Origin: a virus
Reading direction: 5' to 3' (one strand)
IMG/VR virus record: IMGVR_UViG_3300033997_000050
Span: 1-63,047 of that record
Length of the DNA stretch: 63,047 nt
Positions 44,112-60,823 of the stretch are shown one piece after another. The notes beneath the pieces are model-generated. The model was not told the DNA's origin. It saw only the letters and a program-made list of their open reading frames with translations, and did not search any database. How positions within the stretch are numbered: the stretch's first letter is position 1; the number at the start of each line of letters is the position of its first letter. Both the position numbers and the translations under genes were made by a program.

Positions 44112-44140
44112 AGTTGTTTAACAGGGTTATTACTTGTCAA
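44112..44140 (-). promoter_or_regulatory. Dyad promoter/operator (degenerate copy)
   Basis: On the minus strand TTGACA is followed at 17 bases by ACAACT, a poor -10. The spacer contains the degenerate dyad AGTAATAACCCTGTTAA. The site overlaps the end of the upstream gene and points at the basic protein gene (44091). Confidence 0.5.
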
Positions 44141-44366
44141 TCGGTTTGCATTCGTTCAGTGTCTTCTTACCCTCCAGTTCCATGATGCGTCGTTCGAGCT
44201 TTTGGTTGCGCTGCTGGACGTGCATCGCGACGTGCTCGATGTCGCTGGCGCGCTGCTCGGCACGCTGGCGGCGAATCCGCTCGACGGCTGCGCGGTCGGT
44301 CAGGATCGCGGCGGTGCGGTTCCAGATGGTCGTGGTCAATGCTGCGATGCGCGCTTCAAAGCTCAT
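44130..44366 (-). CDS. Small coiled-coil protein
   Basis: A 78-residue, very charged helical protein (RIRRQRAEQRASDIEHVAMH, then RNQKLERRIMELEGKK). ATG at 44366 is preferred because AAGGTGA lies 5 bases ahead of it; an in-frame GTG at 44375 is weaker. It overlaps the upstream gene by 11 bases. Unknown function. Confidence 0.68.
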   Translation of the reverse strand: MSFEARIAALTTTIWNRTAAILTDRAAVERIRRQRAEQRASDIEHVAMHVQQRNQKLERRIMELEGKKTLNECKPIDK

Positions 44367-44595
44367 CGTACTCACCTTCTTCGCGCCACACCCGCACGCC
44401 AGGCTGGAAGTAGATCTCGTCTTCCTCGACCTGGGCGATGCGGATACCGACGCCGGCCTTGACCACCGGGCGCCGCAGGAACTCCATGTCGGCCCGCGTC
44501 ACGTCCGGCACGAAGAACGACTGACCCGGCATCATGCGCTTCAGTTTCTCGACCAGCACGCGGGTCTGTTGTTCGGCTGTTTTATCGCGCGGCAT
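44356..44595 (-). CDS. Hypothetical accessory protein
   Basis: A 79-residue alpha/beta protein (QTRVLVEKLKRMMPGQSFFV, then VGIRIAQVEEDEIYF) ending WREEGEYDEL. The ATG at 44595, just downstream of the RdgC stop, is used rather than a start inside the RdgC gene. Family not recognised. Confidence 0.68.
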   Translation of the reverse strand: MPRDKTAEQQTRVLVEKLKRMMPGQSFFVPDVTRADMEFLRRPVVKAGVGIRIAQVEEDEIYFQPGVRVWREEGEYDEL

Positions 44596-44614
44596 GAATG
44601 CTTTTCCCAGGTAT

Positions 44615-45607
44615 TTAGAGTTCGTCGTCTTCGTCGGCCGGCGCATCTTGACCATCCATGTAGACGGTCATCACAGCGTCGAGCATGCGGTCGATCTCTT
44701 TTGCGAACAGCCAGTAGGTCGCGTGCAGATCGGCCGTGTCGATGCCGGTGCCGGCAACCATTACGTCGCCGAGTTTGATGCCCTTGAATACCAGCTTGTC
44801 GTTCAGCGTGAAGTTGGCCGCGAGATCGCCGTCGTTCACGTACAGCATCATCGCCAGTTCGGTCACGTCGTAGTCGCCGCTGTTCACGATGGCCTTGAAT
44901 TCTTCGTGCGACAGATCGCGGTCCTTCACGCGCACCGTGTTCTTGTTGGCGCCCTTGAACACCGCCGCTTTGGCCGGGTAGAGCATGGTGCCGAAGTCTT
45001 CGTCCGAAGCCTGGGCGCTGCCGTCGCGCACGATCCGCGTGAGCATGGATGCCGGCGACACATGCGTGCTCAGATCCGACCAGTCCAGTTCGACCTTGCG
45101 GGTCTCGCACAGGCGCATCAGGTGCGTCAGGATCTTCTCGCACATCGTGGCGCTCGACGTGCAAACAAACAGCCGCTTGCGGGTGACGATCAGCGGGATC
45201 ACCTTCGGCACGATGAACGCTTTCGGCAGCAGCGCGGTTTCCACGTCGTCGCGCAGTTGGGCGAACTCTTTCTTGTTCAGCGCGCGACCTTCCTTCTCGA
45301 CCAAGGCGTCGTAGCGTTTCTTCAGTTCCTCGTCGCGCACCGATGCCGGCAGCTTGCGTTCGGCCCAGCGGTACATGAATAGGTATCCGGCGCCGTCGAG
45401 GTCGTGGACGATGGCGGTCTCGCCAGGCATCACAGCGGCCAGGCCGAGGTGCGACCATTCGTGATCGCCAGGATCGCGGTCGAGGAAGTTCTTCGCCGCT
45501 TCGAGTGCCGCGTCGCTGTTCTTCACCGCACGCGCGCACCATTTATACAGGGCGTCGTTCACCGCGAACGGCATGAACGCCTTGATGTTTTTGATTGCCT
45601 TAGCCAT
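44615..45607 (-). CDS. rdgC: RdgC-like recombination-associated protein
   Basis: A 330-residue RdgC homologue. Bacterial RdgC is a ring-shaped double-strand DNA binder of about 300 residues that restrains RecA. Family features visible are FMPFAV near the start, a LPKAF segment, TRIVRDGSAQASDEDFGTML, VRVKDRDLSHEEFKAIVNSG and a late KLVFKGIKLGDVM. The phage copy may manage host RecA during replication or protect recombination intermediates. It adds an acidic tail (ADEDDEL) not typical of bacterial RdgC. The start shares a base with the upstream stop (TAATG). Confidence 0.88.
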   Translation of the reverse strand: MAKAIKNIKAFMPFAVNDALYKWCARAVKNSDAALEAAKNFLDRDPGDHEWSHLGLAAVMPGETAIVHDLDGAGYLFMYRWAERKLPASVRDEELKKRYDALVEKEGRALNKKEFAQLRDDVETALLPKAFIVPKVIPLIVTRKRLFVCTSSATMCEKILTHLMRLCETRKVELDWSDLSTHVSPASMLTRIVRDGSAQASDEDFGTMLYPAKAAVFKGANKNTVRVKDRDLSHEEFKAIVNSGDYDVTELAMMLYVNDGDLAANFTLNDKLVFKGIKLGDVMVAGTGIDTADLHATYWLFAKEIDRMLDAVMTVYMDGQDAPADEDDEL

Positions 45608-45810
45608 TACAGTTCGTCCTCTTCGACTGGTTCGTTTTGTGAGTGGTACGGGGTGACGTGATCCTGCGCCATGTAGCGCTTCTCGGCCACGTCCGGCTTC
45701 TCGGTCACGAACACCTTTCCGGTGGTCGGCGACTCGATCAGCCAAGCCTTCGGCGGGCGACCAAAGCGGTCATGCGGGAAGAGGATGTCGGGATCAGCGT
45801 TTCGCTTCAT
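45607..45810 (-). CDS. Small hypothetical protein
   Basis: A 67-residue protein beginning MKRNADPDILFPHDR, with GGAG upstream, then LIESPTTGKVFVTEKPD and the acidic end EPVEEDEL. It is coupled to RdgC (TAATG) and may be co-expressed with it. It overlaps the tiny upstream membrane peptide gene by 17 bases. Family not recognised. Confidence 0.68.
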   Translation of the reverse strand: MKRNADPDILFPHDRFGRPPKAWLIESPTTGKVFVTEKPDVAEKRYMAQDHVTPYHSQNEPVEEDEL

Positions 45811-45910
45811 TCTTTTTCTCCGGGTTGAAGATTTCGTCGGCCCAACGGTCGATGAGCCAACCGATGCCACACATCGCGCCAATGAATATGACGAGCATGA
45901 GCCACTTCAC
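45794..45910 (-). CDS. Tiny membrane peptide (38 residues)
   Basis: A GTG start overlaps the upstream stop (GTGA). The product has one hydrophobic helix (WLMLVIFIGAMCGIGWLI) and a charged tail (FNPEKKNEAKR). It fills the only gap between two coupled genes, which supports its reality. No function can be assigned. Confidence 0.6.
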   Translation of the reverse strand: MKWLMLVIFIGAMCGIGWLIDRWADEIFNPEKKNEAKR

Positions 45911-46566
45911 AGCACGCCTCGCGACAAACGCTCGTTGGGGGTAATCATTTCAGTCGGGCGATCGTCTTCCGTCTCGTGATCGAACGCGAGACTAGGATCA
46001 AGTTCACCAAGCTCGTCGCGGGGATCGGTCGGGTCGATCTCTTCAGGGTGTTCCGTGAACGGCACGGCGAGCGGGCCTTCCGTGGACGCGCCGGCCGGAC
46101 GCATGGTGTACTCCATGACCTCGGTGTCCGGGTTGTACACGTAGTCGATGTCGCAGCGCTGGAACACGGTCGCCATCTGCACCATGTCCAGGGTCATCGA
46201 CGACAGGCCGCTCTGCTCCATGATCGCGCACACGACAGCCGGCGTGGTGACGCGCGTGCGCGCCTCGTACTGCTTTTCCAGCAGGCGCTCGACGCTGCTG
46301 TTCTGCTCCAGCGCTTCGGCGTGGCCGAGCGCGTAGGCGTCGCGCAGGCCGGCGTGCAAGTACGTGTTGATGAGCGCACGGTGCGGGTCTTTCTGACCCA
46401 TGGCGGCACCAAGCGGCAGGGCCGCATGCACCTTGTCGCTAGTGTGGTGAAGAATGCCGGTGAGGTCGCGGCGTTCGCGCTTCGGTGCTTCTTTCGGGGC
46501 GTCGGCGCGGCCGAGCAGCTTGCCGATATTCTGGAGTCCGTTGATGCTGACTTTTTTCTGGTTCAT
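45907..46566 (-). CDS. Hypothetical accessory protein, first gene of a dyad promoter
   Basis: A 219-residue protein. It is basic at the start (MNQKKVSINGLQNIGKLLGR), helical in the middle (YLHAGLRDAYALGHAEALEQ, then CAIMEQSGLSSMTLDMVQMA) and Pro/Asp/Glu-rich over the last 60 residues. A well-formed dyad promoter lies 31 bases upstream, so this is the lead gene of a leftward transcript that includes rdgC. Family not recognised. Confidence 0.75.
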   Translation of the reverse strand: MNQKKVSINGLQNIGKLLGRADAPKEAPKRERRDLTGILHHTSDKVHAALPLGAAMGQKDPHRALINTYLHAGLRDAYALGHAEALEQNSSVERLLEKQYEARTRVTTPAVVCAIMEQSGLSSMTLDMVQMATVFQRCDIDYVYNPDTEVMEYTMRPAGASTEGPLAVPFTEHPEEIDPTDPRDELGELDPSLAFDHETEDDRPTEMITPNERLSRGVL

Positions 46567-46596
46567 TGCGGTTCCCTTGTGTATGGATTGACTGTA

Positions 46597-46625
46597 AGTG
46601 TACTAACAAGGTTTTTCCTTGTCAA
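46597..46625 (-). promoter_or_regulatory. Dyad promoter/operator
   Basis: Minus-strand TTGACA (46625-46620) is followed at exactly 17 bases by TACACT (46602-46597). The spacer holds a perfect inverted repeat, ACAAGG and CCTTGT around five Ts (46606-46622). It would start a transcript just ahead of the gene at 46566. Confidence 0.8.
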
Positions 46626-46630
46626 CTCAT

Positions 46631-47260
46631 TTACAGTGGATCTGGATCTTCCGCGTAGCCGCACCACGCGAAGCGCTTCAGATAGTCGGCTTCGTCCTGC
46701 GCATCGAACGCGGTGGCGTGGATGAAGTAAGTCTCTTCCGGCTTGCAGTAGTTGCCGTCCAGGTCTTCGTGGTCAGGTTGCAGCGGATGCGACCAGTGCT
46801 GGCCGTCCCACCAACGCATGTGCGTCACGTCGGTGCCGTCGTCGAACGCGCCGATCATCTTGCATTGGTAGGCGCCAACGGGTCCGGGATGGAACTCGCT
46901 GGCGTTCATGTAGTCGGTCATTGCCGGCAATGCTTCGGTACTCATAGTTTTGGGTCCAAAAAAGTTGAGTGGAATATCCCGGTACTGCATGCCTGGGATC
47001 ATCGGTGTGATGATCTTGTGGCCGAGCCTGTAGTACGCGGGGGTGTGGCCTTGCTGTGTTGCTTTCGCTTCGACTGCTACGTGGATCTTGTTCCAGTCGA
47101 GCAGGTGGTTCACGAAGCGATGCGCGGTGCCATGGCTGCATCCGAGCATCGACTGGATCTGCTTTAGGGTCGCGCCTTCGCGCGGCCGGCCGAGAAGGAA
47201 CGCGAGGATTCGACGAATCGTTTCCTGCGACTTCTCGGATTCATAGTTTAACCCGGCCAT
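46631..47260 (-). CDS. Winged-helix DNA-binding protein
   Basis: A 209-residue protein with an N-terminal winged helix (about 8-65: QETIRRILAFLLGRPREGAT, LKQIQSMLGCSHGTAHRFVN, then LLDWNKIHVAV). The C-terminal part is rich in aromatic residues and histidine, ends EDPDPL and is not recognised. AAAGGACAGTAGGA precedes the ATG; a longer upstream frame overlaps other genes and is rejected. It lies just upstream of the strongest dyad promoter on this strand, so it is a candidate regulator of the dyad sites. Confidence 0.75.
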   Translation of the reverse strand: MAGLNYESEKSQETIRRILAFLLGRPREGATLKQIQSMLGCSHGTAHRFVNHLLDWNKIHVAVEAKATQQGHTPAYYRLGHKIITPMIPGMQYRDIPLNFFGPKTMSTEALPAMTDYMNASEFHPGPVGAYQCKMIGAFDDGTDVTHMRWWDGQHWSHPLQPDHEDLDGNYCKPEETYFIHATAFDAQDEADYLKRFAWCGYAEDPDPL

Positions 47261-47265
47261 GTGTC

Positions 47266-47556
47266 CTACTGTCCTTTCAGGATGTCGGTGAGGCGACCGC
47301 CGTAGTATTCCAATGCAGCGGTGCCGCTGTTGAATTCTCCGGGACTCGGATAGCGAAGTGCGAGCGCCACGGTTTCGATGTCGTTCAGCTTGCCGACCGC
47401 GACAGCCAGTGGGTCTTTCGATTCGTCCTGCGGGATCGCCGGCAGTTCGATCCACTGACCCGAGTTCAAGTCCCACATGGTTCCGTCATCGCACAGCGCG
47501 GTAAGCGCCACGCCGCCTTGATGCTCGCTGATCGCGATCTGAATTGGCTTACGCAT
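47266..47556 (-). CDS. Hypothetical accessory protein
   Basis: A 96-residue protein with an N-terminal beta pattern found in phage proteins that display a value or command string (VALTALCDDGTMWDLNSGQW). A helix follows (VAVGKLNDIETVALALR), then GGRLTDILKGQ. The stop of the preceding gene overlaps the start. No function assigned. Confidence 0.72.
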   Translation of the reverse strand: MRKPIQIAISEHQGGVALTALCDDGTMWDLNSGQWIELPAIPQDESKDPLAVAVGKLNDIETVALALRYPSPGEFNSGTAALEYYGGRLTDILKGQ

Positions 47557-47687
47557 TATTTCTTCTCCTGCGGTTGCTTGGTTTGTTCGACCGGCCGCTT
47601 TTCGGCCTGCTGTTTCAGCGCTTTGACCAGCGCATCGCCGACCGAGCCGGGCAGCGGTGGCGTCGTGGGTTTCGGATCTTGGTTCAT
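47556..47687 (-). CDS. Short Lys/Pro-rich protein (43 residues)
   Basis: Starts at ATG 47687 after GGGAG. The product is proline-rich at first (DPKPTTPPLPG), then a short helix (VGDALVKALKQQAEKRPVEQ). It overlaps the upstream gene by 4 bases and is coupled to the downstream one (TAATG). Unknown function. Confidence 0.58.
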   Translation of the reverse strand: MNQDPKPTTPPLPGSVGDALVKALKQQAEKRPVEQTKQPQEKK

Positions 47688-48235
47688 GCTGGTGCTCCCA
47701 TGCGATAGCCTTCGATGAGCATCTGGATCGGGTCGTGAACCATCATGTCGAGCACGCCCACGCGGATCACAGTGCCGTCCTTGCAGATCAGCGGAACGAT
47801 CTGGTAGCGGTCGCCATCCCACCTGCCGGGTGCAACGCGATCATGAATTTCCGAGGCAGGCGTGTGCTGACCATCGTGCGAGCCACCCAGCAGCGTCACG
47901 AGCTGCTTGGCGACGTTCGCATCGGTCGAATGCTTGCGCGGCTTGCGGTAGCCCGCCACAAGCTCGCAGACGATGCAGGTGTTCAGTTCCACCACGCCGA
48001 CGTGGAAAACCTCGTGGAAGGCGCCCAGGACGGTCCCAATGGCGTACACGGTGATCGGGTAGGTGTCGGTCGGCGATGTGCCGTGCGGACGGTCCAACAT
48101 GCGGATCGCGGTGTCGTCCTCGTTGTTGGGCAGGCCATCGCCGCAAACGTTATGCGTGCGCTGCGCCATCGGCACGATGATGCGCTGGCCGTCTGCTGGC
48201 CCGCCGATAAGCAGGACTGGTTTGTTGTGGCTCAT
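47684..48235 (-). CDS. Hypothetical protein with duplicated GG-x2-DGQ motif
   Basis: A 183-residue protein in which two halves each begin with a similar turn: VLLIGGPADGQRIIVP near residue 6 and VTLLGGSHDGQHTPAS near 120. Each is followed by a strand-rich stretch (YPITVYAIGTVLGAFHE; DRYQIVPLICKDGTVIR). This looks like an internal duplication of a small beta domain seen singly in other phage proteins. AAAGGAAA precedes the chosen ATG. Function unknown. Confidence 0.72.
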   Translation of the reverse strand: MSHNKPVLLIGGPADGQRIIVPMAQRTHNVCGDGLPNNEDDTAIRMLDRPHGTSPTDTYPITVYAIGTVLGAFHEVFHVGVVELNTCIVCELVAGYRKPRKHSTDANVAKQLVTLLGGSHDGQHTPASEIHDRVAPGRWDGDRYQIVPLICKDGTVIRVGVLDMMVHDPIQMLIEGYRMGAPA

Positions 48236-48251
48236 GATGCTGGGTTTCCTT

Positions 48252-48632
48252 TCAGATGATAATGATTTCACGGTGGTTGATGGAGCAGAGCTTCGGATCT
48301 TCGTGAGGGCCGTACCAGCGCAATTGCCAGCGGTCGGTCCACCCGAGAGTCTGACGCTGGGTTTCCTTGCACGTCAGCGTCACCGACACGCGCGTCTTCC
48401 AGCATTTGCCGTGATACACGCCGCTCGGATAGGAGGTCGAGTAATCGGCAAGCTGATCGAACTCGCGCTGCGTCATCATGGCATGGGTGTCGTCGATCAG
48501 GAAGTTCTGCGGGTTCGGCTGGCGCCAGTGCTGGCCCATTTCATCCGTGATCGGCGGGATCGGCGGATTGAACGTGGCGATGACGCTGGCGAACATCGGG
48601 ACCGGATAGGTGGTGCGGATGAGGCCGGTCAT
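48252..48632 (-). CDS. Hypothetical accessory protein
   Basis: A 126-residue protein with a proline-rich start, an HWRQPNPQNFLIDDTHAMMT segment and a basic, aromatic C-terminal half (TLGWTDRWQLRWYGPHEDPK) ending in four isoleucines or Glu-Ile repeats. The start overlaps the preceding stop. Family not recognised. Confidence 0.7.
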   Translation of the reverse strand: MTGLIRTTYPVPMFASVIATFNPPIPPITDEMGQHWRQPNPQNFLIDDTHAMMTQREFDQLADYSTSYPSGVYHGKCWKTRVSVTLTCKETQRQTLGWTDRWQLRWYGPHEDPKLCSINHREIIII

Positions 48633-50128
48633 CCGATCACCTCTTTCAATTTGTTCTCAGCGTTGACGGTGATCTCGTCGACCCGGCTGTCGTGAACGTC
48701 GGCGACCTTTGAGAAGCCGGTGAACAGAACTTTCGCGCTTTCTACGCCGAACACGTCCTTGACGGCGACCAGTAATTCGACCATGCGGTCACGCCCGGTC
48801 TTCTCGGTCGCCAGTGCTGCCGTCGCGATCTTTTTCGATTCATCGGGGAACGGGTGCGGCGCGTCGGCCGCTGGCGCCAGTGCTCGTCCTCCGACCGTCT
48901 TCGTCACCGGCCGCATTGCCTCACTCAACTGCTCGGCCACGGCGGTCGGGCATTCGGCAGGCGGCGGCGCGTCGCACGGCGACTCGACCGTGAAGCCGCA
49001 GAACTTGCACTCTTCGTGTTCGGGTTCGGCGTTCGTCGACGCAACGACGGCCAGGGCTTCAGCAGCGGGCATCGGCAGTTCGCCCGTTTCCACGTAGCGA
49101 TCCATCAGCGCGAGCGTGTGTTTGCCGTCCTCGGACTCGCGATCCACCGGAACGTCGAAATGCTCATAGACGCTGCTATGCCGCTCCATGCGGTCATGCT
49201 CACCCTTGCTCGCCACGGCGATCACCTGGTGGAAGCTGGTCGACTTGTACCGCGTCCCGGTGCGCATGGTCGAAGGGTTCATTTCGATGCACCAGCCGAT
49301 GCCCTTGAATTGGCCGATGGTCAGGCGCGACCATGGTTCGGTGAGCAGGCCAGCAAGGTCACGCAGCAGCGCCGCATCGTTGATGATCTTCAGCGCCTCG
49401 TCGGAGGTCTCGGCGAGCATGTTCGCGCGTGCGTCGTTCCGCTCGGCTTCGCTGCGCTGCAATTCGGCTTGCAGATAGTTCGCCAGGTCGAGCGATTCCT
49501 GGAGCGCATGCGTGAGCAGTTCGCGCTTCGACAGGCCCGAGCCGGCGAGCGTCACGCCGTACTTCTCGATGCCGACCTTCGAGCGTGACAGCAGCAGTTC
49601 ACGGTTCGCCTCGACCACTGGATCGACAGCCTTCTCGCCCAGGCCCGGCGTGGTCGGCTCGATCATGCGCGGTCGCAGCCGGCGTTCGTGTGGCGCTTCG
49701 GCCGGCGCATTCCAGGTGTGCATCTTAAACTCGGTGCCGTCGCGCTGCACGTCGGCCGTGAGAACCGGGAACACGGTCAAGCCGTCGCGCACCTTCGGCT
49801 GATTGAACGCCACGCGAATTGCTTCCAACTGTTCCGGCGTCGGTTCGGGCAGCGTGACGGTCACTGGCGGGAACGCCCGCGTGCGCTTCTCCATCAGGTC
49901 CGCGAGGGCGGCGCCTTGCAGAAACGATTCGAGATATTTGCGTGCGCGGCACGGCCCGTTGACCGGGTTGCTGCAATACTGCGGCAGATCCTCCAACAGA
50001 TTCAGTTGCTTCTTCAGGTTGTCGAGCAGATCTTGGCTCGGGTGATAGGCCAGCACATACGCTGCCTGCGCGACTTCCAGCAGGCTCGCAATGATGGCGT
50101 TCGGGTTCGGTGGGATTGCGGTGCTCAT
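48629..50128 (-). CDS. Large accessory protein with MazG-like helical motif
   Basis: A 499-residue multi-part protein. Residues about 180-235 (SRSKVGIEKYGVTLAGSGLS, then ELLTHALQESLDLANYLQAE) match the phage MazG-like nucleotide pyrophosphohydrolase pattern, with the E-x2-D metal-binding acids. About 260-310 is a domain shared with the next upstream gene (FKGIGWCIEMN, then SFHQVIAVA). A cysteine-rich stretch (CKFCGFTVESPC) lies near 375. MazG-like enzymes clear altered or signalling nucleotides; here the catalytic set looks reduced, so activity is uncertain. Confidence 0.72.
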   Translation of the reverse strand: MSTAIPPNPNAIIASLLEVAQAAYVLAYHPSQDLLDNLKKQLNLLEDLPQYCSNPVNGPCRARKYLESFLQGAALADLMEKRTRAFPPVTVTLPEPTPEQLEAIRVAFNQPKVRDGLTVFPVLTADVQRDGTEFKMHTWNAPAEAPHERRLRPRMIEPTTPGLGEKAVDPVVEANRELLLSRSKVGIEKYGVTLAGSGLSKRELLTHALQESLDLANYLQAELQRSEAERNDARANMLAETSDEALKIINDAALLRDLAGLLTEPWSRLTIGQFKGIGWCIEMNPSTMRTGTRYKSTSFHQVIAVASKGEHDRMERHSSVYEHFDVPVDRESEDGKHTLALMDRYVETGELPMPAAEALAVVASTNAEPEHEECKFCGFTVESPCDAPPPAECPTAVAEQLSEAMRPVTKTVGGRALAPAADAPHPFPDESKKIATAALATEKTGRDRMVELLVAVKDVFGVESAKVLFTGFSKVADVHDSRVDEITVNAENKLKEVIG

Positions 50129-50701: not shown

Positions 50702-50804
50702 TCTGTTTCCCTTTCTTCGTTGGTTTCGGATGATTCGGGCAGTTCTCGCATCGCTCGCCTGGCCCGGTGTGGACGAGCGGATTGCGCGGCGGTTTGATGG
50801 TCAC
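50634..50804 (-). CDS. Possible small C-x2-C protein (56 residues)
   Basis: A GTG start overlaps the upstream stop (GTGA). The frame encodes a basic, proline-rich peptide with ERCENCPNH, a possible metal-binding knuckle. It fills an otherwise empty 99-base gap but overlaps the next gene by 68 bases, so it may be spurious. Confidence 0.4.
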   Translation of the reverse strand: MTIKPPRNPLVHTGPGERCENCPNHPKPTKKGKQNDRTESSIPPRRNAGRGGSGGH

Positions 50805-51010
50805 AGTTCGTCCTCGTCGGGTTCGAGGATCAGTTGCGTGTCACCGTGCTTCGTCTGGTTGGTGCGGATCAGGTTCAGCTTCAGGTGATCCAACAGCGCG
50901 TACACCACGTCGCTCAATTCGTCGTGCGTCATGTCGTGGCAATAGCGGATCATCGTTTCGCGGAATGGCGCCGGCTCCATGACTGGCGCTATTTTCTGTT
51001 TCCGGGTCAT
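50801..51010 (-). CDS. Small hypothetical protein
   Basis: A 69-residue, mostly helical protein (FRETMIRYCHDMTHDELSDV, then ALLDHLKLNLIRTNQ) ending LEPDEDEL. ATG at 51010 overlaps the upstream stop (ATGA), which decides the start. Family not recognised. Confidence 0.7.
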   Translation of the reverse strand: MTRKQKIAPVMEPAPFRETMIRYCHDMTHDELSDVVYALLDHLKLNLIRTNQTKHGDTQLILEPDEDEL

Positions 51011-53913: not shown

Positions 53914-54329
53914 TTCAGGCTCCAGGATTCGAGGTTGTCATAGATTGCGCGGATTGCTACCGCGAGATAGGTCGGGCGCGGGATCGGTGCAGGCCGGCCG
54001 CGACGCTGCATTTCCAGCGCTTCGGCGATGATCTGCTCGGTCTCGAAGAACTTGCGTGCCGACTCGGTGTATTCGATGTCGCGGCTGATGTACTCGCGCA
54101 GTTGCTTGTTGTCGAAATTACCGATACCTGGGTCGTTGAAGCTACCCGCACCTTTGCCGTAGATCGCATTGACGTTCTTCAGCGAACTCTGCTTGAGCAT
54201 GCGCAGCTTCGCTTGGGCGCGCGCCTCAAGGTTGAGGTCCACGAAGCGCTGCAAGTCGCCTTCATTCAATGCGTCGACCGTGGCTTGCTGATACGGTTGC
54301 AGTCCGATTTTGATCTTGTCCATGGTCAC
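53910..54329 (-). CDS. Hypothetical accessory protein
   Basis: A 139-residue protein beginning GTG at 54329 (overlapping the upstream stop) or ATG at 54323. It is helical, with YQQATVDALNEGDLQRFVDL and FFETEQIIAEALEMQRRGRP. No family was recognised. Confidence 0.7.
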   Translation of the reverse strand: MTMDKIKIGLQPYQQATVDALNEGDLQRFVDLNLEARAQAKLRMLKQSSLKNVNAIYGKGAGSFNDPGIGNFDNKQLREYISRDIEYTESARKFFETEQIIAEALEMQRRGRPAPIPRPTYLAVAIRAIYDNLESWSLK

Positions 54330-54676
54330 ACCGTCCGGTGAACGAGCGCCAGCAGATACATGCCGCTCTTGATGTTGATCTCGGTGATCTCGACGCTGAA
54401 GTCGGAACCAGGGATGCGGCGCTTGGCCGACGACACGGCCGAGGTCACGCTGTTGCGCAGCTTGTCGGCCTGCGCGCTCATCGTGGCCTTCGCGTCGCCG
54501 ATGGTGGTGGTCGGGTCGATCTGCACCACGCGCGCGGCCGGCATGTCGCCAACCTCCATGTCCGCGACGGCGGCGTTGAACGAGAAGGCGCGAGCGCGCG
54601 GCGGTGGTGCGATGTCGACCTCGGGACTCATCGCGCCGACGATGGCCGCTGCGAGGACTTGATTACGTGCTGACAT
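54326..54676 (-). CDS. Hypothetical accessory protein
   Basis: A 116-residue protein with a proline-rich start, a helical middle (ATMSAQADKLRNSVTSAVSS) and a beta end (SDFSVEITEINIKSGMYLLA). AAGGAAA lies ahead of the start. It is second in the leftward transcript. Function unknown. Confidence 0.72.
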   Translation of the reverse strand: MSARNQVLAAAIVGAMSPEVDIAPPPRARAFSFNAAVADMEVGDMPAARVVQIDPTTTIGDAKATMSAQADKLRNSVTSAVSSAKRRIPGSDFSVEITEINIKSGMYLLALVHRTV

Positions 54677-54697
54677 GGTGTTTCCTTGTTGAGTGAT

Positions 54698-54928
54698 TTA
54701 CAGAGCGTCGAGCGTGATGTCGAGGTTGTTCAGCGCCGAGCGAGCGCTGTTCTGCGCCAGGTCCAGGTGCGTCACGATGTTGGCGCGGGCCGGGCTGTCC
54801 GACTCGACGTACAGCGCGTTTTCCTGGCGACGGACTTCGCGGATCTTGTCGACCAGTTCGCGAGCCATGTCGCGGATCTCGGTCAGCGACTCCAGCGAGT
54901 TCGCTACAGTGTTCTTCGACGATGCCAT
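54698..54928 (-). CDS. First gene of the leftward accessory block
   Basis: A 76-residue helical protein (SLESLTEIRDMARELVDKIR, then AQNSARSALNNLDITLDAL). ATG at 54928 is preferred over a TTG 18 bases upstream because TAGGAG lies just ahead. A strong dyad promoter (54964-54992) drives it. Function unknown; as the lead gene it may be made early. Confidence 0.75.
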   Translation of the reverse strand: MASSKNTVANSLESLTEIRDMARELVDKIREVRRQENALYVESDSPARANIVTHLDLAQNSARSALNNLDITLDAL

Positions 54929-54963
54929 GCTGTTTCTCCTATTCAATGGGTAGTGGTGCAGCC

Positions 54964-54992
54964 ATTATCATGACAGGGAAAAACCTTGTCAA
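54964..54992 (-). promoter_or_regulatory. Dyad promoter/operator for the leftward block
   Basis: Minus-strand TTGACA (54992-54987) and GATAAT (54969-54964) are exactly 17 bases apart. The spacer carries the dyad AGGTTTTTCCCTGTC. This is the best sigma70-type promoter seen in the window and faces the block ending at 42664. Confidence 0.85.
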
Positions 54993-55018
54993 CAAGTTTT
55001 TGAAATTCAGATTCCGAA

Positions 55019-55050
55019 TTTTGGGAACCGGCTAGGACTGCAAAGTAAGC
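55019..55050 (+). repeat. 32-base tandem repeat, copy 1
   Basis: TTTTGGGAACCGGCTAGGAC continuing to GTAAGC matches 55082-55113 at 28 of 32 positions. The period is 63 bases. A GACAGGG half-dyad follows directly. Confidence 0.8.
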
Positions 55051-55081
55051 GACAGGGTTTCATCTAAATTGGAAAACGGAT

Positions 55082-55113
55082 TTTTGGGAACCGGCCAGGT
55101 CTGTCAAGTAAGC
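55082..55113 (+). repeat. 32-base tandem repeat, copy 2
   Basis: Second copy, beginning TTTTGGGAACCGGCCAGGTC. Both copies are followed by GGTTTCA-type segments and a GGAAAACG box, so the repeat unit may be an operator array. Confidence 0.8.
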
Positions 55114-55437
55114 CGGAAAACGTGGTTTCACCTTGTCGACTGGTCCGCAGTACCGTCAGCCTGGCGCCGGCCGTGGCTTGGTCTCGGGCCTGGGGCATGG
55201 CGAAAAAGCCGGTTTTGAACGAAATTTGGTGGGCGTGCCTGGGGCGCCGTGGGATATTCGGAAATAGCAGCTACCGGACGTGGCAAATATTTGGCCGGTA
55301 TGCGTGGTGCGCCGCGTTTCGTTCTGTCGGTATAGCGGGCCGGCCTGGTGGCCTGGTATCGGCGGCGCTGCAAACCGGGCGACGTGGTTTTTCCGTGTCG
55401 CCTGTTCCACATTTGCACGGCACGGTATGCAAAACTG

Positions 55438-55466
55438 TTGACAGGGTTTTTCCTTGTCTGTATCTT
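55438..55466 (+). promoter_or_regulatory. Dyad promoter/operator for the rightward accessory block
   Basis: TTGACA (55438-55443) and TATCTT (55461-55466) are 17 bases apart, with the dyad GGGTTTTTCCTTGTC between them. A start near 55473 would leave a leader of about 50 bases before the gene at 55522. Confidence 0.82.
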
Positions 55467-55494
55467 TGCAATCAGTCCGGTGCAAACCGGCTTA

Positions 55495-55516
55495 CAAACA
55501 ATCCCTAAAACGGAGT
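55495..55516 (+). repeat. 22-base leader repeat, copy 1
   Basis: CAAACAATCCC, one variable base, then AAAACGGAGT ends with the ribosome site of the gene at 55522. The same 22 bases with one change occur at 57497-57518. Confidence 0.7.
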
Positions 55517-55521
55517 TCGAA

Positions 55522-56226
55522 ATGTTGCAAGTTAAATTGGTCTACAGTGAAAGCTTTACCGCTCAAACGATGGACGGCGCTACCGCCGAACTTATCAAGG
55601 TAGTCGATGCGCTGGGTAACTCCTACGGGCTTCTTGACTGCGGTGGAAAGCTAAAAGCTTGGTGCGGCTCGATTGATAAAAATAGTGTCGAATGCGTTCT
55701 TGTCGAAGTGCCGCGCGTGTCCCTGGTAAAACCCGAAGCGCCGGAATGCGTGGCGCACCTGGCCGATGTGCCGCAAGAGAGCAACGCTGATGTGATGGCG
55801 CGCGCCGTTGCTTTCGTCCGCGATATCCGCCTTACCGCTGAATACCTGGCGGCGCACGATGGCGAACCGGCCACGCTGGACGCGGGCGTGTCGGACAATG
55901 AGCAAGTGCGCGCACTGGCGCATGAACAGGCCCGCGCCGATGCGGCCCGCGTGCTGTCCGGCGTGGCGCTGTGTGACATCGCACCATGCCCGAGTAACCG
56001 CGATCCCATGGCGGGCGAATGCTGCGATACGTGCGGCGCGGCGCTGGAGTCGGGCCAGATTGGCGACTGCGACGAATGCCAAGAGGAACCGCAAGAGTTC
56101 ATCAATCATTACAAGTGCTATCGGTGCGCGCATGAATGGGCGGACCAGTGGACGGCGCAATGTGACGACGATTGCCCCGAGTGCGGCGCGCGCCACGTCT
56201 CCCCGCATACGTCGGAGGATGCGTAA
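55522..56226 (+). CDS. Zinc-ribbon accessory protein
   Basis: A 234-residue protein starting at 55522 (ACGGAG upstream). The C-terminal third carries two Cys clusters, ECCDTCGA...CDEC and YKCYRCAHEW...CDDDCPECGARH, which should bind zinc. It ends SPHTSEDA, an ending seen in plasmid-type accessory proteins. The N-terminal part contains LGNSYGLLDCGGKLKAWCGS. First gene of the rightward accessory block. A host takeover or counter-defence role is possible but unproved. Confidence 0.75.
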   Translation: MLQVKLVYSESFTAQTMDGATAELIKVVDALGNSYGLLDCGGKLKAWCGSIDKNSVECVLVEVPRVSLVKPEAPECVAHLADVPQESNADVMARAVAFVRDIRLTAEYLAAHDGEPATLDAGVSDNEQVRALAHEQARADAARVLSGVALCDIAPCPSNRDPMAGECCDTCGAALESGQIGDCDECQEEPQEFINHYKCYRCAHEWADQWTAQCDDDCPECGARHVSPHTSEDA

Positions 56227-56228
56227 TC

Positions 56229-56582
56229 ATGAACCGCGACAACGAAACGACGACAGAACACGCTTTCACGGACGCCGACACGGCCCGCGCGTTCATCCGT
56301 AAAGCGCCGCCCGGTACGCGCTTTTATCTGCATGTCCGCATGGCCGCTTACATCGTGGACGATCCCGACCATTACGCGCCGTCCGCGTTCTGCGCTGGTG
56401 TCGGCCTGTCGCGCAAGGATGCTTTGTCGTTCATCCGCGATGCTTGGATGGGAATTCGTCCAGAACGAAATTACATCATGCGAATGCGCGAGACTGTCCG
56501 GCCAGCGGATAGCCGTTGGTGTCGCAAAACGGATGCAATCGTTTATCCCGCGCGCCCGGATCGCGCCGTGTGGATTGGCTAA
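56229..56582 (+). CDS. Hypothetical accessory protein
   Basis: A 117-residue protein starting two bases after the previous stop. It shows ADTARAFIRKAPPGTRFYLH, then AGVGLSRKDALSFIRDAW and a basic end. Family not recognised. A promoter and dyad follow it. Confidence 0.7.
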   Translation: MNRDNETTTEHAFTDADTARAFIRKAPPGTRFYLHVRMAAYIVDDPDHYAPSAFCAGVGLSRKDALSFIRDAWMGIRPERNYIMRMRETVRPADSRWCRKTDAIVYPARPDRAVWIG

Positions 56583-56592
56583 TGTAAACTTG

Positions 56593-56622
56593 TTGACAGG
56601 GTTTTTCCTTGTCGTTTAAAAT
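56593..56622 (+). promoter_or_regulatory. Dyad promoter/operator, internal
   Basis: TTGACA (56593-56598) is followed by TAAAAT at 18 bases (TTAAAA at 17), with GGGTTTTTCCTTGTC between. It would restart transcription for the second half of the rightward block. Confidence 0.8.
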
Positions 56623-56652
56623 GCTTTCTGTCGGGCAAGCTGTAAGCCTGGC

Positions 56653-56674
56653 GACAGTGTTTTACCTTGTCAAC
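56653..56674. promoter_or_regulatory. Dyad site without clear -10 (operator-like)
   Basis: GACAGTGTTTTACCTTGTCA is another copy of the dyad, 55 bases after the preceding one. The plus-strand -35 is poor (GCGACA), and the minus strand has TTGACA without a -10. It looks like an accessory operator. Confidence 0.65.
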
Positions 56675-56693
56675 GAATTTACATAGGCCAGTG

Positions 56694-56804
56694 ATGGATT
56701 ACGAATACACCCCGCCCGATGGATTGCTTTACCGCCTTGCGGATTACTGCGTCCATGTTGGCTGTATCGGTCTCGCGCTGGCGATAATTTTTCATCCATT
56801 CTAA
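56694..56804 (+). CDS. Tiny membrane peptide (36 residues)
   Basis: The frame encodes MDYEYTPPDGLLYRLADYCV and then a hydrophobic helix (GCIGLALAIIF). It follows a dyad pair and ends 12 bases before the next gene. One-helix peptides at such positions may act on the host membrane; this is inference. Confidence 0.55.
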   Translation: MDYEYTPPDGLLYRLADYCVHVGCIGLALAIIFHPF

Positions 56805-56816
56805 GGAATCGCAATC

Positions 56817-57479
56817 ATGTCTTTCGCATCCAAAAACGCTGACCTCTTGAACCTGTTCGCCCTATTCGGCAAGCCTGTTCCTACCGAAGATTCCAACATG
56901 GGTCGCGCCGTGTCGATCCTGCAAACCATCGCTGACAACCACTCGCACAGCTTCAGCGTTGACGCCGACGAACTGGCCGAAGAAATGGCCGATAACCTGA
57001 AGGGTTGGAGCATCTTTAACGGCAATGCCGCGTTCAACCCTTACGCCGAGTCGCACGACGGCAAGCGGGCAGAGGGTGAAACCAAGTATGAAGTTCTCGC
57101 AGCCGCTTACGTGCTGGCCGGTCTCACGCTGGAAGAGAGCTATACGCCGGACGAATTTGACGCGCTGGAAGAACTGGAAAGCATGATTGCTGAAGGACTC
57201 GACGATAACAATTTCGAGTTCGACGGCAACGAATACCGCCTCATCAAGTCGGACGAGGATTGCATTTGGCCCATCTACCGTGACGCTATCCAATCGACCC
57301 TAGAAGACTGCTATTCCGACGTTCTCAAGCTGGATAAGATTCCGTCGTTTATCGCCGTATCCGTGGACTGGGAACAGACCGCAAAGAACGCATACGCCGA
57401 TGGCTACGGCCACCAGTTCAGCAGCTATGACGGCAGCGAATACGAAGCGGGCGGATACTACATTTTCCGCACGAACTAA
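56817..57479 (+). CDS. Acidic accessory protein
   Basis: A 220-residue, strongly acidic protein (many D/E, for example LAEEMADNLKGWSIF and LEELESMIAEGLDDNNFEFD). It ends VDWEQTAKNAYADGYG, then GYYIFRTN, a C-terminal pattern shared by small proteins of plasmids and phages. AAGGAAT precedes the start. High acidity is compatible with a DNA mimic such as antirestriction proteins, but no such family was recognised. Confidence 0.72.
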   Translation: MSFASKNADLLNLFALFGKPVPTEDSNMGRAVSILQTIADNHSHSFSVDADELAEEMADNLKGWSIFNGNAAFNPYAESHDGKRAEGETKYEVLAAAYVLAGLTLEESYTPDEFDALEELESMIAEGLDDNNFEFDGNEYRLIKSDEDCIWPIYRDAIQSTLEDCYSDVLKLDKIPSFIAVSVDWEQTAKNAYADGYGHQFSSYDGSEYEAGGYYIFRTN

Positions 57480-57496
57480 GCGCCACGAGACCATTT

Positions 57497-57518
57497 CAAA
57501 CAATCCCGAAAACGGAGT
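57497..57518 (+). repeat. 22-base leader repeat, copy 2
   Basis: Second copy of the leader (CAAACAATCCC, G, AAAACGGAGT), again ending in the ribosome site of the following gene. Conservation of the whole leader rather than the ribosome site alone suggests RNA-level control. Confidence 0.7.
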
Positions 57519-57523
57519 AAATC

Positions 57524-58219
57524 ATGATCCCTCAATATCTCGACCTGAACAAGAAAGGCGGCGCACCGGCCCGCCTGGTAATCCTGCGCAACATGGCCGC
57601 GCACACCAACGCGCCGGACGTGAACATGCCACCGTCGCGCCGCTTTGCCGACTGGCGCGCCGCCCGCACGCAAACGCTTTTGACTGGCGGTCATGACCTC
57701 TGCGCCGGCTACAACACGGAAAGCGACGGCACGAAAATCAACGTGTGGTCTACCTTCTCCGCGCCGAACTTCCGCGACGAACGCAACGCCGACGACATCG
57801 AAGGCGCACGCATCAGGCATCGCGGATGGTTCGCGGATGCGGATTGCTCGAACACGGTGCGCGGCATCGTAGGGCGCCTGTCGCATGGTCGCTTTATTGC
57901 GGGCTACAAGGTCAGCGATACGGGGGAACATGTGTATCTGGATCATGTGTTTGACGATGAAGTGTCAGCCGCATATGACGCCGACGAATTCGCCCGCGAG
58001 TATGCGGAACAAGCGAAGGAGTATGACGAACGATGGCAAGCGGCGCATGCGCTGAACGACGAGATTGCGGAAGTGTCGCGCAACGTGGCCCGCATGTTCA
58101 AGCTGCGCCATACGGACGGATTCGACAGCGCCGCTGACTATCGAGACCTTGAGTACGGCATTTCCGAACTGCGCACGCTGAAGGAAAAGCGCGCCGAATA
58201 TTCCGACGTTGAACTGTGA
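57524..58219 (+). CDS. Hypothetical accessory protein
   Basis: A 231-residue protein. The N-terminal part is basic and proline-rich (NMPPSRRFADWRAARTQTLL). The middle is beta-rich with RHRGWFADADCSNTVRGIVG and the C-terminus is a long helix ending EYSDVEL. The middle resembles plasmid-borne accessory proteins that accompany zinc-ribbon genes. Function unknown. Confidence 0.72.
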   Translation: MIPQYLDLNKKGGAPARLVILRNMAAHTNAPDVNMPPSRRFADWRAARTQTLLTGGHDLCAGYNTESDGTKINVWSTFSAPNFRDERNADDIEGARIRHRGWFADADCSNTVRGIVGRLSHGRFIAGYKVSDTGEHVYLDHVFDDEVSAAYDADEFAREYAEQAKEYDERWQAAHALNDEIAEVSRNVARMFKLRHTDGFDSAADYRDLEYGISELRTLKEKRAEYSDVEL

Positions 58220-58230
58220 AAGGCTGCACC

Positions 58231-58755
58231 ATGATTACCATCAAAGAATCGCATCCGTTCTCGGCCGACTTCGCGCACGCTTGCCGCGAGAACTACGGCA
58301 AGGATTACATGGGCCGCATTTCGCCAAAGTCGGCACGCGCGCTGTGCGGCATGTATCCAGTTCCGAAAGTCGGAAATGAAACCCTCGTTGCGCTGCGCCC
58401 GAACGGCCCGCGCCTGTATGTTTCGAATATCAGCGGGCATTTCGTGCTGCGCTCCGCACAGGCCCGCGTGTCCGAATGGCCGACAATGTTCGGCGTCACG
58501 TTCGTCCGCAAGCCGTCCGACAATGAGATTCTTGCGCAGATTGCGCATGCTTTCGCCGAAAGTGGAGTAATTAGCGAAAAGGATTTTCGCGCACTGTCCG
58601 AACACGAGGCGACGACGACCAATGACCGCGCCGCACTTCAGCGCATCTTGTACGGCAATGCGAACCGCACGCCGGGCGGGCAAGTCATCGCAGGCTGTGA
58701 CGACTATGCGACGGTGCGCGCGCTGGCCGACTACATCGAAAAATTGGAGGGTTGA
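58231..58755 (+). CDS. Hypothetical accessory protein
   Basis: A 174-residue protein starting at 58231 (AAAGG upstream). It shows SPKSARALCGMYPVPKVGNE, LRPNGPRLYVSN and a C-terminal TPGGQVIAGCDDYATVRALA helix. Family not recognised. Confidence 0.7.
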   Translation: MITIKESHPFSADFAHACRENYGKDYMGRISPKSARALCGMYPVPKVGNETLVALRPNGPRLYVSNISGHFVLRSAQARVSEWPTMFGVTFVRKPSDNEILAQIAHAFAESGVISEKDFRALSEHEATTTNDRAALQRILYGNANRTPGGQVIAGCDDYATVRALADYIEKLEG

Positions 58756-58758
58756 AGC

Positions 58759-59067
58759 ATGCTGAAAACTCATATCAACCGGTGCGATCAATTCAACCTG
58801 GCATTGTCGCAAGGCGGTTACTCCTGGCCTGGCGGTTATCCGCTTTACTTCGTGATGGCCGATGGCGAAAGCCTGGCCTTTGACGTGGCGGGCCTTCCCG
58901 ATGTAGCTCCGCTGATTCGCGATGCAATCATCGCTGGCCCGCATACCGGTAACGATGAATGGTGCGTGGTCGCTGTTGCGATCAATTGGGAAGATGAGGA
59001 ACTGAAATGCGTGCATACCGGGCGCGCCATCGAATGCGCTTATCCATCCGACGAAGAGGACATTTAA
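58759..59067 (+). CDS. Hypothetical acidic accessory protein
   Basis: A 102-residue protein with GGYSWPGGYPLYFVMADGES, a pattern of small phage/plasmid proteins, then VVAVAINWEDEELKCVHTGR. It ends AYPSDEEDI. Four bases separate it from the previous stop (ATG after GGAGGG). No function assigned. Confidence 0.72.
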   Translation: MLKTHINRCDQFNLALSQGGYSWPGGYPLYFVMADGESLAFDVAGLPDVAPLIRDAIIAGPHTGNDEWCVVAVAINWEDEELKCVHTGRAIECAYPSDEEDI

Positions 59068-59069
59068 TC

Positions 59070-59306
59070 ATGCGACTTGCAGCAACTTTGACGAACACGC
59101 GCAACGGCAAGAAAACTAACGTGCGTCTCCGTGCGCCGTCGATTCATGGCGGTATCTGGATTATGTCGGAGCGTGCGCGCCGCGCCGCATTCAAACGGAT
59201 TGACGCCGATTGGACCGACACGAATGCGGGCGTAGTCTCGACGCACACGGCCCGCGCCGTAGACCAAGACGGATTCCACACTTTCACTATCCACACGGAG
59301 CAATGA
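59070..59306 (+). CDS. Hypothetical basic accessory protein
   Basis: A 78-residue basic protein (LTNTRNGKKTNVRLRAPSIH, then MSERARRAAFKRIDADW). The start lies two bases after the previous stop; the stop overlaps the next start (ATGA). Nucleic acid binding is possible from charge only. Confidence 0.68.
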   Translation: MRLAATLTNTRNGKKTNVRLRAPSIHGGIWIMSERARRAAFKRIDADWTDTNAGVVSTHTARAVDQDGFHTFTIHTEQ

Positions 59307-59563
59307 CCATGTGCCGCAATACCGAACTGAAGAAATTCCGCACGCTGGCGGGACCAGCGCGCCGCGCCGCGATCCGTCGCCACCTGGCCGGCGTGGATAA
59401 AATCGACTTCGCCGCCGATCCGCATACCCTGGCAATCTCGCAGCAATGCGCCCTGGCAGACATGGCGCGTGCCGTGTGCTGGCGCAAATCCATCACGTCG
59501 TGCATGTCGCTCGGTCTGGCCTTTTTCGTCTACCTGTCCCGCGATGCGGGCCGCACCATCTAA
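59303..59563 (+). CDS. Hypothetical helical accessory protein
   Basis: An 86-residue protein, basic and helical (LKKFRTLAGPARRAAIRRHL), with a hydrophobic end (SITSCMSLGLAFFVYLSR) that could contact the membrane. It starts at the ATGA overlap (MTM) or two codons later. Unknown family. Confidence 0.65.
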   Translation: MTMCRNTELKKFRTLAGPARRAAIRRHLAGVDKIDFAADPHTLAISQQCALADMARAVCWRKSITSCMSLGLAFFVYLSRDAGRTI

Positions 59564-59579
59564 CGCTGGAGAAAACATC

Positions 59580-59927
59580 ATGAATATCGAATACATCGAA
59601 GTCACGGCACGCGGTTTTAACGGCGCGACGGATACCACGGATGACCGCGTTATCTGGTTGTCGGCTTCGTCCCTGGCGAACGTGGTTGAACTGCTGGCCG
59701 CGTGCAAAGCGCCGCATCTGAAAGTCGAACGACTCAGTAGCGGCAACGTGGTAGGCGCTGCGCTTGACTTCGTGCTGCCGGCCCAAAATGCCGAACTGGT
59801 GGCGCACCTGTTCTCGTTCGTGGTGGCCGACATGCGCGCCGCGCTGGAGCGCATCGGCAATGACGCCAGCGTGTCGGCGCTGGACTTCCCACGCATCGCC
59901 CGCGCCGCGCTTGAGGTGTCGAAATGA
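59580..59927 (+). CDS. Hypothetical accessory protein
   Basis: A 115-residue alpha/beta protein (MNIEYIEVTARGFNG, SASSLANVVELLAACKAPHL, LFSFVVADMRAALERIG). TGGAGAAAA lies ahead of the ATG. It overlaps the next start by 4 bases. Family not recognised. Confidence 0.7.
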   Translation: MNIEYIEVTARGFNGATDTTDDRVIWLSASSLANVVELLAACKAPHLKVERLSSGNVVGAALDFVLPAQNAELVAHLFSFVVADMRAALERIGNDASVSALDFPRIARAALEVSK

Positions 59928-60139
59928 TGGGCCTGATTCTGGCCCGTATGCTGGCCCTCGTGTTCGCGCTCATCGTCGGCGGGTTCATCACCCTGGTCAT
60001 GCTGGCGTTCGGCGATAAACAGGAAGCGATGCAATCGGCCATTATCACGGCCATGTTCATGTGGCTGATCGCCCCGAGTGCCGAGGATCGCGCCGACTTC
60101 GCCGAATTCCAAAAGAGCCGTGAGCGCTTCCCGTCCTGA
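59924..60139 (+). CDS. Small membrane protein, two helices
   Basis: A 71-residue protein with hydrophobic helices at about 3-27 (MLALVFALIVGGFITLVML) and 37-51 (SAIITAMFMWLIAP), ending in a charged tail. It forms a pair with the next small membrane gene. Confidence 0.68.
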   Translation: MMGLILARMLALVFALIVGGFITLVMLAFGDKQEAMQSAIITAMFMWLIAPSAEDRADFAEFQKSRERFPS

Positions 60140-60141
60140 CC

Positions 60142-60297
60142 ATGAAAAAGCTGATCGTGTGGGCTGCTGCGCTGGTCCTGTCCGTTCTGACTGTCGGACT
60201 GCTGCATTACCTCGTGTCGCCATGGGCCGCGCAAGCTGTTGCGCCCCTTGTCGGTATCGGCTTCGGCGCTGGTGCGCTGATGCTGGTCGGGTCATGA
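60142..60297 (+). CDS. Small membrane protein (51 residues), two helices
   Basis: The frame starts ATG after CTGACC and encodes MKKLIVWAAALVLSVLTVGL, then a second hydrophobic helix (VAPLVGIGFGAGALMLVG). Two bases separate it from the previous stop and it is followed by a terminator, so it is the last gene of the rightward accessory block. Confidence 0.62.
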   Translation: MKKLIVWAAALVLSVLTVGLLHYLVSPWAAQAVAPLVGIGFGAGALMLVGS

Positions 60298-60321
60298 TCT
60301 AACCCGCTCCCCTCCTACCCT

Positions 60322-60350
60322 GGCCCGCTTCGTGCGGGCCTTTCTCATTT
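60322..60350 (+). terminator. Rho-independent terminator of the rightward block
   Basis: A perfect 7-bp stem (GGCCCGC and GCGGGCC) with loop TTCGT is followed by TTTCTCATTT. Confidence 0.82.
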
Positions 60351-60800
60351 CTGGCCCTGGCATTCCCCTGGCCTGTCTCCCTCGTGCGCGTGCGTTCATG
60401 CGCTGGCATGCACGAACCTCTGTTTTTCCCAAACCTGCATAGCGGGGCTGTAGCGGCCTGCCCTGGTGGCGACGTATCAGCATGTCGGCCTGTCCCTGGT
60501 CGCGGCGTGGTGGCCTGGTCCCTGGCCTGGTAGCGGCATATCCGCATAGCTGAATAGCTGGATGGTTGCATAGCGGGTTGTCCCTGCGTTTCCGAATAGC
60601 GTTTAAATCGACGGAATGGGGCCGCCACGCTGCGAACGCGGGTCGATTGGTATCCGCCTAGCCTGATGGGTCGAAAACGGCGCTACGGGCTTCTAATCGA
60701 GCCGGGGTCAAAAGGTACTTCCCAGGGGGTCGAAGGGCTGCGGGGGTCCGCTGAGCCCCGATTCACGCGATTTTTCGAAAACGGCCATAGCACCAATCTG
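60351..60800. other. GC-rich non-coding stretch with short repeats
   Basis: No convincing gene was found. The hexamer (C/A)ATAGC occurs at 60438, 60545, 60553, 60569, 60595 and 60786, and CCTGG/GGCCTGG units recur between 60360 and 60535. ATAGCGG with CCTGGTGGC downstream also occurs near 55.34 kb. The stretch may hold a replication origin or protein-binding array. Confidence 0.5.
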
Positions 60801-60823
60801 TTGACACGGTTTTTCCTTGTCAT
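60801..60823 (+). promoter_or_regulatory. Dyad site, weak promoter
   Basis: TTGACA is followed by CGGTTTTTCCTTGTCAT and then CCGACT, a poor -10. No good gene follows on the plus strand, so this is either an operator or a promoter for a short untranslated RNA. Confidence 0.6.

What the first reader, a model, noticed from the sequence alone, without database searches (positions are those of the whole stretch)
44112..60823. One dyad operator overlaps the -35 box of promoters for accessory blocks on both strands
A sequence with arms near TTGACAAGG and CCTTGTCAA around a five-base T or A run occurs at 44118-44140, 46605-46625, 54970-54992, 55438-55458, 56593-56613, 56653-56674 and 60801-60823, with partial copies near 55050 and 55122. 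In at least four cases TTGACA is followed at 17-18 bases by a fair -10 (GATAAT, TACACT, TATCTT, TAAAAT). The dyad sits between -35 and -10, so a bound protein would block RNA polymerase. It appears only in the accessory half of the genome. This suggests an undescribed regulon that controls the counter-transcribed accessory blocks together.
Basis: partly seen in the sequence, partly recalled or inferred. Interest (0 to 1): 0.78.

Follow-up and report, generated by a model that had tools for sequence, protein, structure and literature searches.

The report
Shared operator on phage early promoters
A bacterial virus carries the same mirror-image DNA switch over the start signals of its early gene blocks, and its relatives carry switches of the same spacing but different lettering, which points to an undescribed early-gene off-switch in this virus family; the protein that works it is not yet known.

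Summary
Seven sites match TTGACA(A/G)GG-W5-CC(T/C)TGTC(AA), all between 44.1 and 60.8 kb, with almost none expected by chance. Four have good sigma-70 promoters (-35 TTGACA as one arm of the dyad, -10 after 17-18 bp). I found a second pair of arms (TGYAAA/TTTRCA) around the same centre, so the full element is a nested palindrome of about 43 bp, plus further sites near 54681, 55128 and 55390. The phage belongs with the Casjensviridae (AH2, BcepNazgul, phiAxp-2). The same geometry, TTGAC-N13-GTCA, marks early promoters in other genera, but the core letters differ by lineage. Control spacings give almost nothing. Best reading: operators of a phage-encoded repressor that shuts off host-polymerase early promoters by steric block. 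Two candidate binders are encoded. The winged-HTH protein 46631-47260 sits 17-22 bp from an operator in six genomes, and its recognition helix tracks the operator type within the clade. The Cro-like 99-aa protein 736-1035 is family-wide, but its recognition helix does not track the operator once phylogeny is removed. The 60812 and 56662 sites are not promoters for any gene. Nothing has been tested at the bench.

The parts
44108..44150 (-). Operator, centre 44129, outer arms TGTAAG/TTTGCA; TTGACA at 44140-44135 reading left, weak -10; upstream of gene 43657-44091
   Evidence: orthologue G004 19772
46593..46635 (-). Operator-promoter, centre 46614, full nested palindrome; TTGACA 46625-46620, TACACT 46602-46597; upstream of gene 45907-46566 and 17 bp from the end of the winged-HTH gene
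   Evidence: orthologues in G001, G002, G004, G005; weak orthologue in G006
54660..54702 (.). Candidate operator, centre 54681, overlapping the RBS and start codon of gene 54326-54676; conserved in G001, G004, G007 and L071. Could partly be RBS/ATG mimicry
54960..55002 (-). Operator-promoter, centre 54981; TTGACA 54992-54987, GATAAT 54969-54964; head of the leftward accessory block
   Evidence: orthologue G004 10560
55107..55149 (.). Weak operator, centre 55128, 147 bp from 54981; the same spacing (146-147) in G004 and L071
55369..55411 (.). Weak operator, centre 55390, 59 bp upstream of the 55449 operator (tandem pair)
55428..55470 (+). Operator-promoter, centre 55449; TTGACA 55438-55443, TATCTT 55461-55466; head of the rightward accessory block
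56583..56625 (+). Operator-promoter, centre 56604; TTGACA 56593-56598, TAAAAT 56617-56622; upstream of the small ORF 56693-56806 and gene 56817-57479
   Evidence: orthologue G004 8306
56641..56683 (.). Operator without promoter, centre 56662, 58 bp downstream of the previous one; same 58-bp pair in G004 and L071
60791..60833 (.). Dyad, centre 60812, in the convergent non-coding gap 3' of the primase gene; similar dyads at this place in a number of relatives; role unexplained
46631..47260 (-). Winged-HTH protein (209 aa), candidate binder; C-terminal DUF2510-like part
736..1035 (-). Cro-like 99-aa protein directly upstream of the primase gene in every relative read; candidate binder
   Evidence: against:
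54326..54676 (-). DUF7609 gene, family-wide, at or near the head of an operator-controlled operon; function unknown
55522..56226 (+). First gene of the rightward block, downstream of operator-promoter 55449

Best explanation
The sites are operators of one phage-encoded DNA-binding protein. Shown by sequence: each is a 21-bp inner dyad whose left arm is, at promoter sites, the -35 hexamer TTGACA and whose right arm fills the spacer, ending at the -10; in this phage's clade a second pair of arms extends it to about 43 bp. Inferred: host RNA polymerase with sigma-70 reads the leftward and rightward accessory (early) blocks at once after entry; the phage protein accumulates, binds the dyads as a dimer or pair of dimers, and occludes -35, spacer and -10, shutting the early blocks off as infection passes to the middle stage. 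Extra dyads 58-59 bp away would help by cooperative binding or as roadblocks. The same geometry with lineage-specific core letters in other genera fits divergence of repressor specificity around a half-site partly fixed by the polymerase. Most likely binder in this clade: the winged-HTH protein 46631-47260 (about 0.4); next the Cro-like protein 736-1035 (about 0.25).
For: Sites far above chance and confined to the accessory part. Same motif in relatives at 65-84% identity, at matching positions in the closest. Outer arms: TG at -21 in 27 and CA at +21 in 23 of 49 sites chosen by the inner part alone in relatives; neighbouring offsets 0-6, apart from -13/+13 (12 each, part of the GTTGACA context). 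Dyads without a promoter are kept (56662, 55390), so a binding protein rather than polymerase alone is selected for. Family-wide geometry: promoter dyads with an 11-bp gap 23, other gaps 7-15 at most 1 each, in 1.63 Mb; TTGAC-N13-GTCA 48 matches against 3 for the reversed control in 31 genomes; lineage-specific cores in AH2, Nazgul, phiAxp-2, AXY1, JS26, SNUABM_08, Enc34. In AH2 the sites lie just upstream of annotated genes (with 44, 54). Serratia phage JS26 RNA-seq shows that its cluster of hypothetical genes is expressed early and replication genes in the middle (PMC8754663). Winged-HTH: operator 17-22 bp from its stop codon in six genomes, and its recognition helix is alike in phages with AAGG cores and alike, but different, in the two with GGG cores.
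Against: No binding or transcription-start data exist. The winged-HTH gene is not detectable outside the clade although the geometry is. The Cro-like recognition helix correlates with the operator only through phylogeny (partial Mantel r -0.21), and the two closely related genomes G002/G005 have the same operator but Cro-like proteins only 44% identical. 60812 has no gene downstream. Activation instead of repression is not excluded.
Confidence: 0.68

Rival explanations
1. The dyad is bound by a phage activator or polymerase-associated factor that turns the accessory promoters on (or later on) rather than off.
For: The dyad is combined with -10 boxes of only moderate strength at several sites; outer arms reach the UP-element and discriminator regions.
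Against: A site covering -35, spacer and -10 on both sides is the classical position for repression; the four main -35 boxes are perfect TTGACA and need no help; promoterless dyads are kept.
Confidence: 0.13
2. The repeats are only strong early promoters copied around the genome by duplication; the dyad is a by-product of shared promoter sequence.
For: Sites share TTGACA and -10 spacing; early promoters in one phage often resemble each other.
Against: The right arm is not needed by polymerase, yet it is kept and changes together with the left arm between lineages; promoterless dyads are conserved; outer arms are conserved.
Confidence: 0.06
3. The dyads serve DNA-level functions (replication origin, partition or packaging signals) and overlap promoters secondarily.
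For: A cluster lies in the divergent gap that also holds iteron-like repeats, and one dyad lies past the primase gene, where related phages have their genome ends, in a number of relatives.
Against: Most sites lie at promoters on both strands with the right spacing to a -10 and short leaders to start codons.
Confidence: 0.08
4. A host transcription factor, not a phage protein, binds the sites.
For: No binding protein is proven.
Against: Core letters differ between phages of related hosts (AH2 and Nazgul, both Burkholderia) while geometry stays, which fits phage-borne specificity.
Confidence: 0.05

Closest known systems
Lambda-type OR/OL operators with CI/Cro
   Same: Palindromic operators overlapping early sigma-70 promoters in both directions; a Cro-family protein is encoded (profile match to Xfaso1 Cro 3bd1, E 6.6e-7)
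   Different: Single operators or pairs at several dispersed promoters rather than two clusters of three; 43-bp nested form; no tyrosine integrase (PF00589) and no HTH_3 repressor found; the Cro-like protein does not track the operator
Cluster A mycobacteriophage operator/stoperator system (PMC6550527, PMC9283540; titles and abstracts only)
   Same: One recognition sequence repeated across the genome; some copies are not promoters
   Different: Stoperators are asymmetric, bound by a monomeric repressor, and numerous across the genome; here the sites are symmetric, few, and in the accessory part only
Early/middle/late expression programme of Serratia phage JS26 (PMC8754663)
   Same: Same family; a cluster of hypothetical genes is early, replication genes middle
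   Different: The passages I read do not describe operators or a repressor of the early cluster

Membership tests
Phage early-gene repressor regulon | Repeated symmetric operator overlapping early promoters | tested here: met
   (that the promoters are early is inferred from JS26)
Phage early-gene repressor regulon | Conserved in relatives, with partner arm kept | tested here: met
Phage early-gene repressor regulon | A repressor protein that binds the operator | not testable with these tools
   two candidates only; covariation test inconclusive or negative
Lambda Cro/CI switch | Cro-family protein encoded | tested here: met
Lambda Cro/CI switch | CI-type repressor and integrase (lysogeny module) | tested here: not met
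   no PF00589 or PF01381 match in the genome; serine integrases not searched
Lambda Cro/CI switch | Cro recognition helix matches operator type | tested here: not met
   partial Mantel r -0.21; G002/G005
Cluster A stoperators | Asymmetric site | tested here: not met
   sites are palindromic
Casjensviridae | Homologous replication and structural genes in the same order, Cro-like gene upstream of primase | tested here: met
Casjensviridae | Formal family demarcation (whole-proteome clustering) | not tested

The most novel reading that the evidence does not exclude
A whole family of siphophages keeps a built-in early-gene shut-off in which the polymerase's own -35 hexamer is one arm of the operator. 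Geometry has stayed fixed while the core letters, and perhaps the binding protein itself, were replaced lineage by lineage, with extra dyads used as distant partners (58-59 and 147 bp) and one near the presumed genome end.
Probability: 0.3. Interest if true: 0.7.

Novelty: new member of a known kind. Interest (0 to 1): 0.52.

Why it matters
It gives a testable regulatory map for a large, poorly annotated phage family (Burkholderia, Achromobacter, Serratia, Erwinia and Hafnia/Enterobacter hosts): which promoters fire first, which genes are early, and which protein turns them off. Lineage-specific operators with a fixed frame would make these phages a natural experiment on how a repressor and a promoter co-evolve when half the operator is pinned by RNA polymerase. 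The early blocks are where anti-defence genes often lie, so knowing their switch helps in finding them.

Tried and rejected
Megablast against annotated phages found no near relative; my initial idea of a Bcep22-like phage was dropped after family searches. Assigning the Cro-like protein as binder by recognition-helix covariation: plain Mantel r 0.39, p 0.001, but the signal vanished when primase distance was removed, so it is rejected as evidence. Operator half-sites for that test were entered by hand from earlier scans. Winged-HTH homologues outside the clade: none after iterated profile search. DUF7609 as regulator: the AlphaFold model has no convincing match. No Rfam family in the window. 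Outer arms first looked symmetric partly because the matrix used both orientations; re-tested on sites chosen by the inner part only. Searches for papers on Casjensviridae promoters, Nazgul, Enc34 and phiAxp-2 gave nothing on such an operator. G003 (one dyad, no outer arms, different G+C, no alignment to the window) is probably unrelated. Three calls with wrong coordinates or frames failed; the first two were repeated correctly.

Full report
What the window is. The window is one virus record of 63,047 bases with an exact 127-base end repeat (1-127 = 62921-63047), so it is most likely a complete, circularly assembled genome; the primase gene runs across the join (860-codon open frame). PHROGs matches give exonuclease, ssDNA-binding protein, DNA polymerase, helicase, terminase, portal, protease, head and long-tail proteins. 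The best annotated relatives by DNA polymerase include Burkholderia phage AH2, Achromobacter phages AXY1 and phiAxp-2 and Serratia phage JS26, all Casjensviridae in their records. No tyrosine-type phage integrase or HTH_3 domain was found.

Observation. All seven dyads are present. With up to three mismatches the two-arm pattern has 6 matches against 0.04 expected. A matrix scan ranks 44129, 46614, 54981, 55449, 56604, 56662 and 60812 (centres) far above the rest, then 54681, 55390 and 55128; the only hit outside the accessory part is marginal (40847). Markov-simulated genomes give essentially none.

A larger element. A repeat search returned the sites as a 44-base family, and the aligned sites show a second pair of arms, TGYAAA and TTTRCA, centred on the same point. 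To avoid circularity I picked sites in relatives by the inner 21 bases only: of 49, TG lies at -21 in 27 and CA at +21 in 23, against counts of 0-6 at other offsets, the exception being -13/+13 (12 each, from the GTTGACA context). In this clade the operator is therefore a nested palindrome of about 43 bp.

Relatives. An exact core search in IMG/VR found seven contigs; six of them carry 4-10 sites each. Those shown in the alignment table (the output was cut before G007) match the window over much of its length at about 65-84% identity, and G003 has no alignment. In the closest, G004, the sites match the window's in order and spacing: 58-bp tandem pairs, the 147-bp pair, the site by the winged-HTH gene and the one past the primase. 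In G002 and G005 both arms have shifted together to GGG/CCC. A primase-based search, which does not use the motif, brought in 80 viral loci. In 1.63 Mb from it and from the bacterial genome search, promoter-associated dyads with an 11-base gap number 23, and no other gap from 7 to 15 exceeds 1; several of these loci (L077, L083, L095, L101, L104) had not been found through the motif.

Family-wide geometry. AH2 has TTGACACYG-N5-CGGTGTCA at several early-region promoters, directly upstream of annotated genes. BcepNazgul, phiAxp-2, AXY1, JS26, Erwinia phage SNUABM_08 and Enc34 have versions with other cores but the same frame. Across 31 records, TTGAC-N13-GTCA matches 48 times and its reversed control 3 times; some of the 48 lie in structural genes and are chance. 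Since polymerase asks only for TTGACA, the kept right arm is evidence for a symmetric binding protein.

Who binds. The Cro-like 99-aa protein is encoded just upstream of the primase in every relative read. Its profile matches solved Cro proteins (3bd1, E 6.6e-7) and the model is a confident all-helical HTH fold. But its recognition helix follows the operator only through phylogeny (partial Mantel r -0.21), and G002 and G005 share an operator while their Cro-like proteins are 44% identical beside an 89% identical primase. The winged-HTH protein 46631-47260 is clade-limited; its gene ends 17-22 bp from an operator centre in six genomes, its helix is similar among AAGG phages, and its HTH part is about 92% identical between G002 and G005. 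I rate it the better candidate here, without proof.

How it probably works. JS26 RNA-seq shows a cluster of hypothetical genes early and replication genes in the middle (PMC8754663). Put together, host polymerase reads both accessory blocks at once and a phage protein then covers -35, spacer and -10 to stop them. Shown: sites, promoter-like boxes, conservation, geometry. Inferred: binding, repression, timing in this phage, cooperation between tandem sites.

Loose ends. The dyad at 60812 lies between converging genes, and similar dyads lie 3' of the primase in a number of relatives, where AH2, Nazgul and Enc34 records have their ends; it may be a small-RNA promoter, a roadblock or a DNA-level site. 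The site at 54681 overlaps the start of the DUF7609 gene; this gene is family-wide and in several relatives is the first gene after a TTGACA promoter, so the position is meaningful, but RBS mimicry cannot be excluded.

Noticed in passing
55003-55113: Two copies of a repeat (rc: GCTTACTTGACAGACCTGGCCGGTTCCC) in the divergent gap; similar CTTACTTGAAAAACCTNGCCGGATCCC arrays (3-4 copies) lie at the same place in L088 and L090, and single copies in BcepNazgul. Looks like iterons of an origin or an RNA element.
   Followed up: partly
window 6629-8488, 8762-9358, 42667-43316, 44356-45882, 50801-51010, 61095-62978: At least nine proteins (helicase, small terminase, primase and six small early proteins) end in an acidic -(D/E)EL tail; the ssDNA-binding protein ends in DEDL. 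Suggests a shared docking or degradation tag.
   Followed up: partly
1-127 and 62921-63047: Exact 127-base end repeat: genome probably complete, primase gene split by the contig ends.
   Followed up: yes
L048 centre 13047 (G002) and L034 centre 16704 (G005): A weak dyad of the same type in the late region of two relatives, near the window's 8.5 kb, i.e. before the terminase genes.
   Followed up: no
window 54326-54676: DUF7609 gene is one of few accessory genes shared across Casjensviridae and is at or near the head of an operator-controlled operon; fold not recognised.
   Followed up: partly
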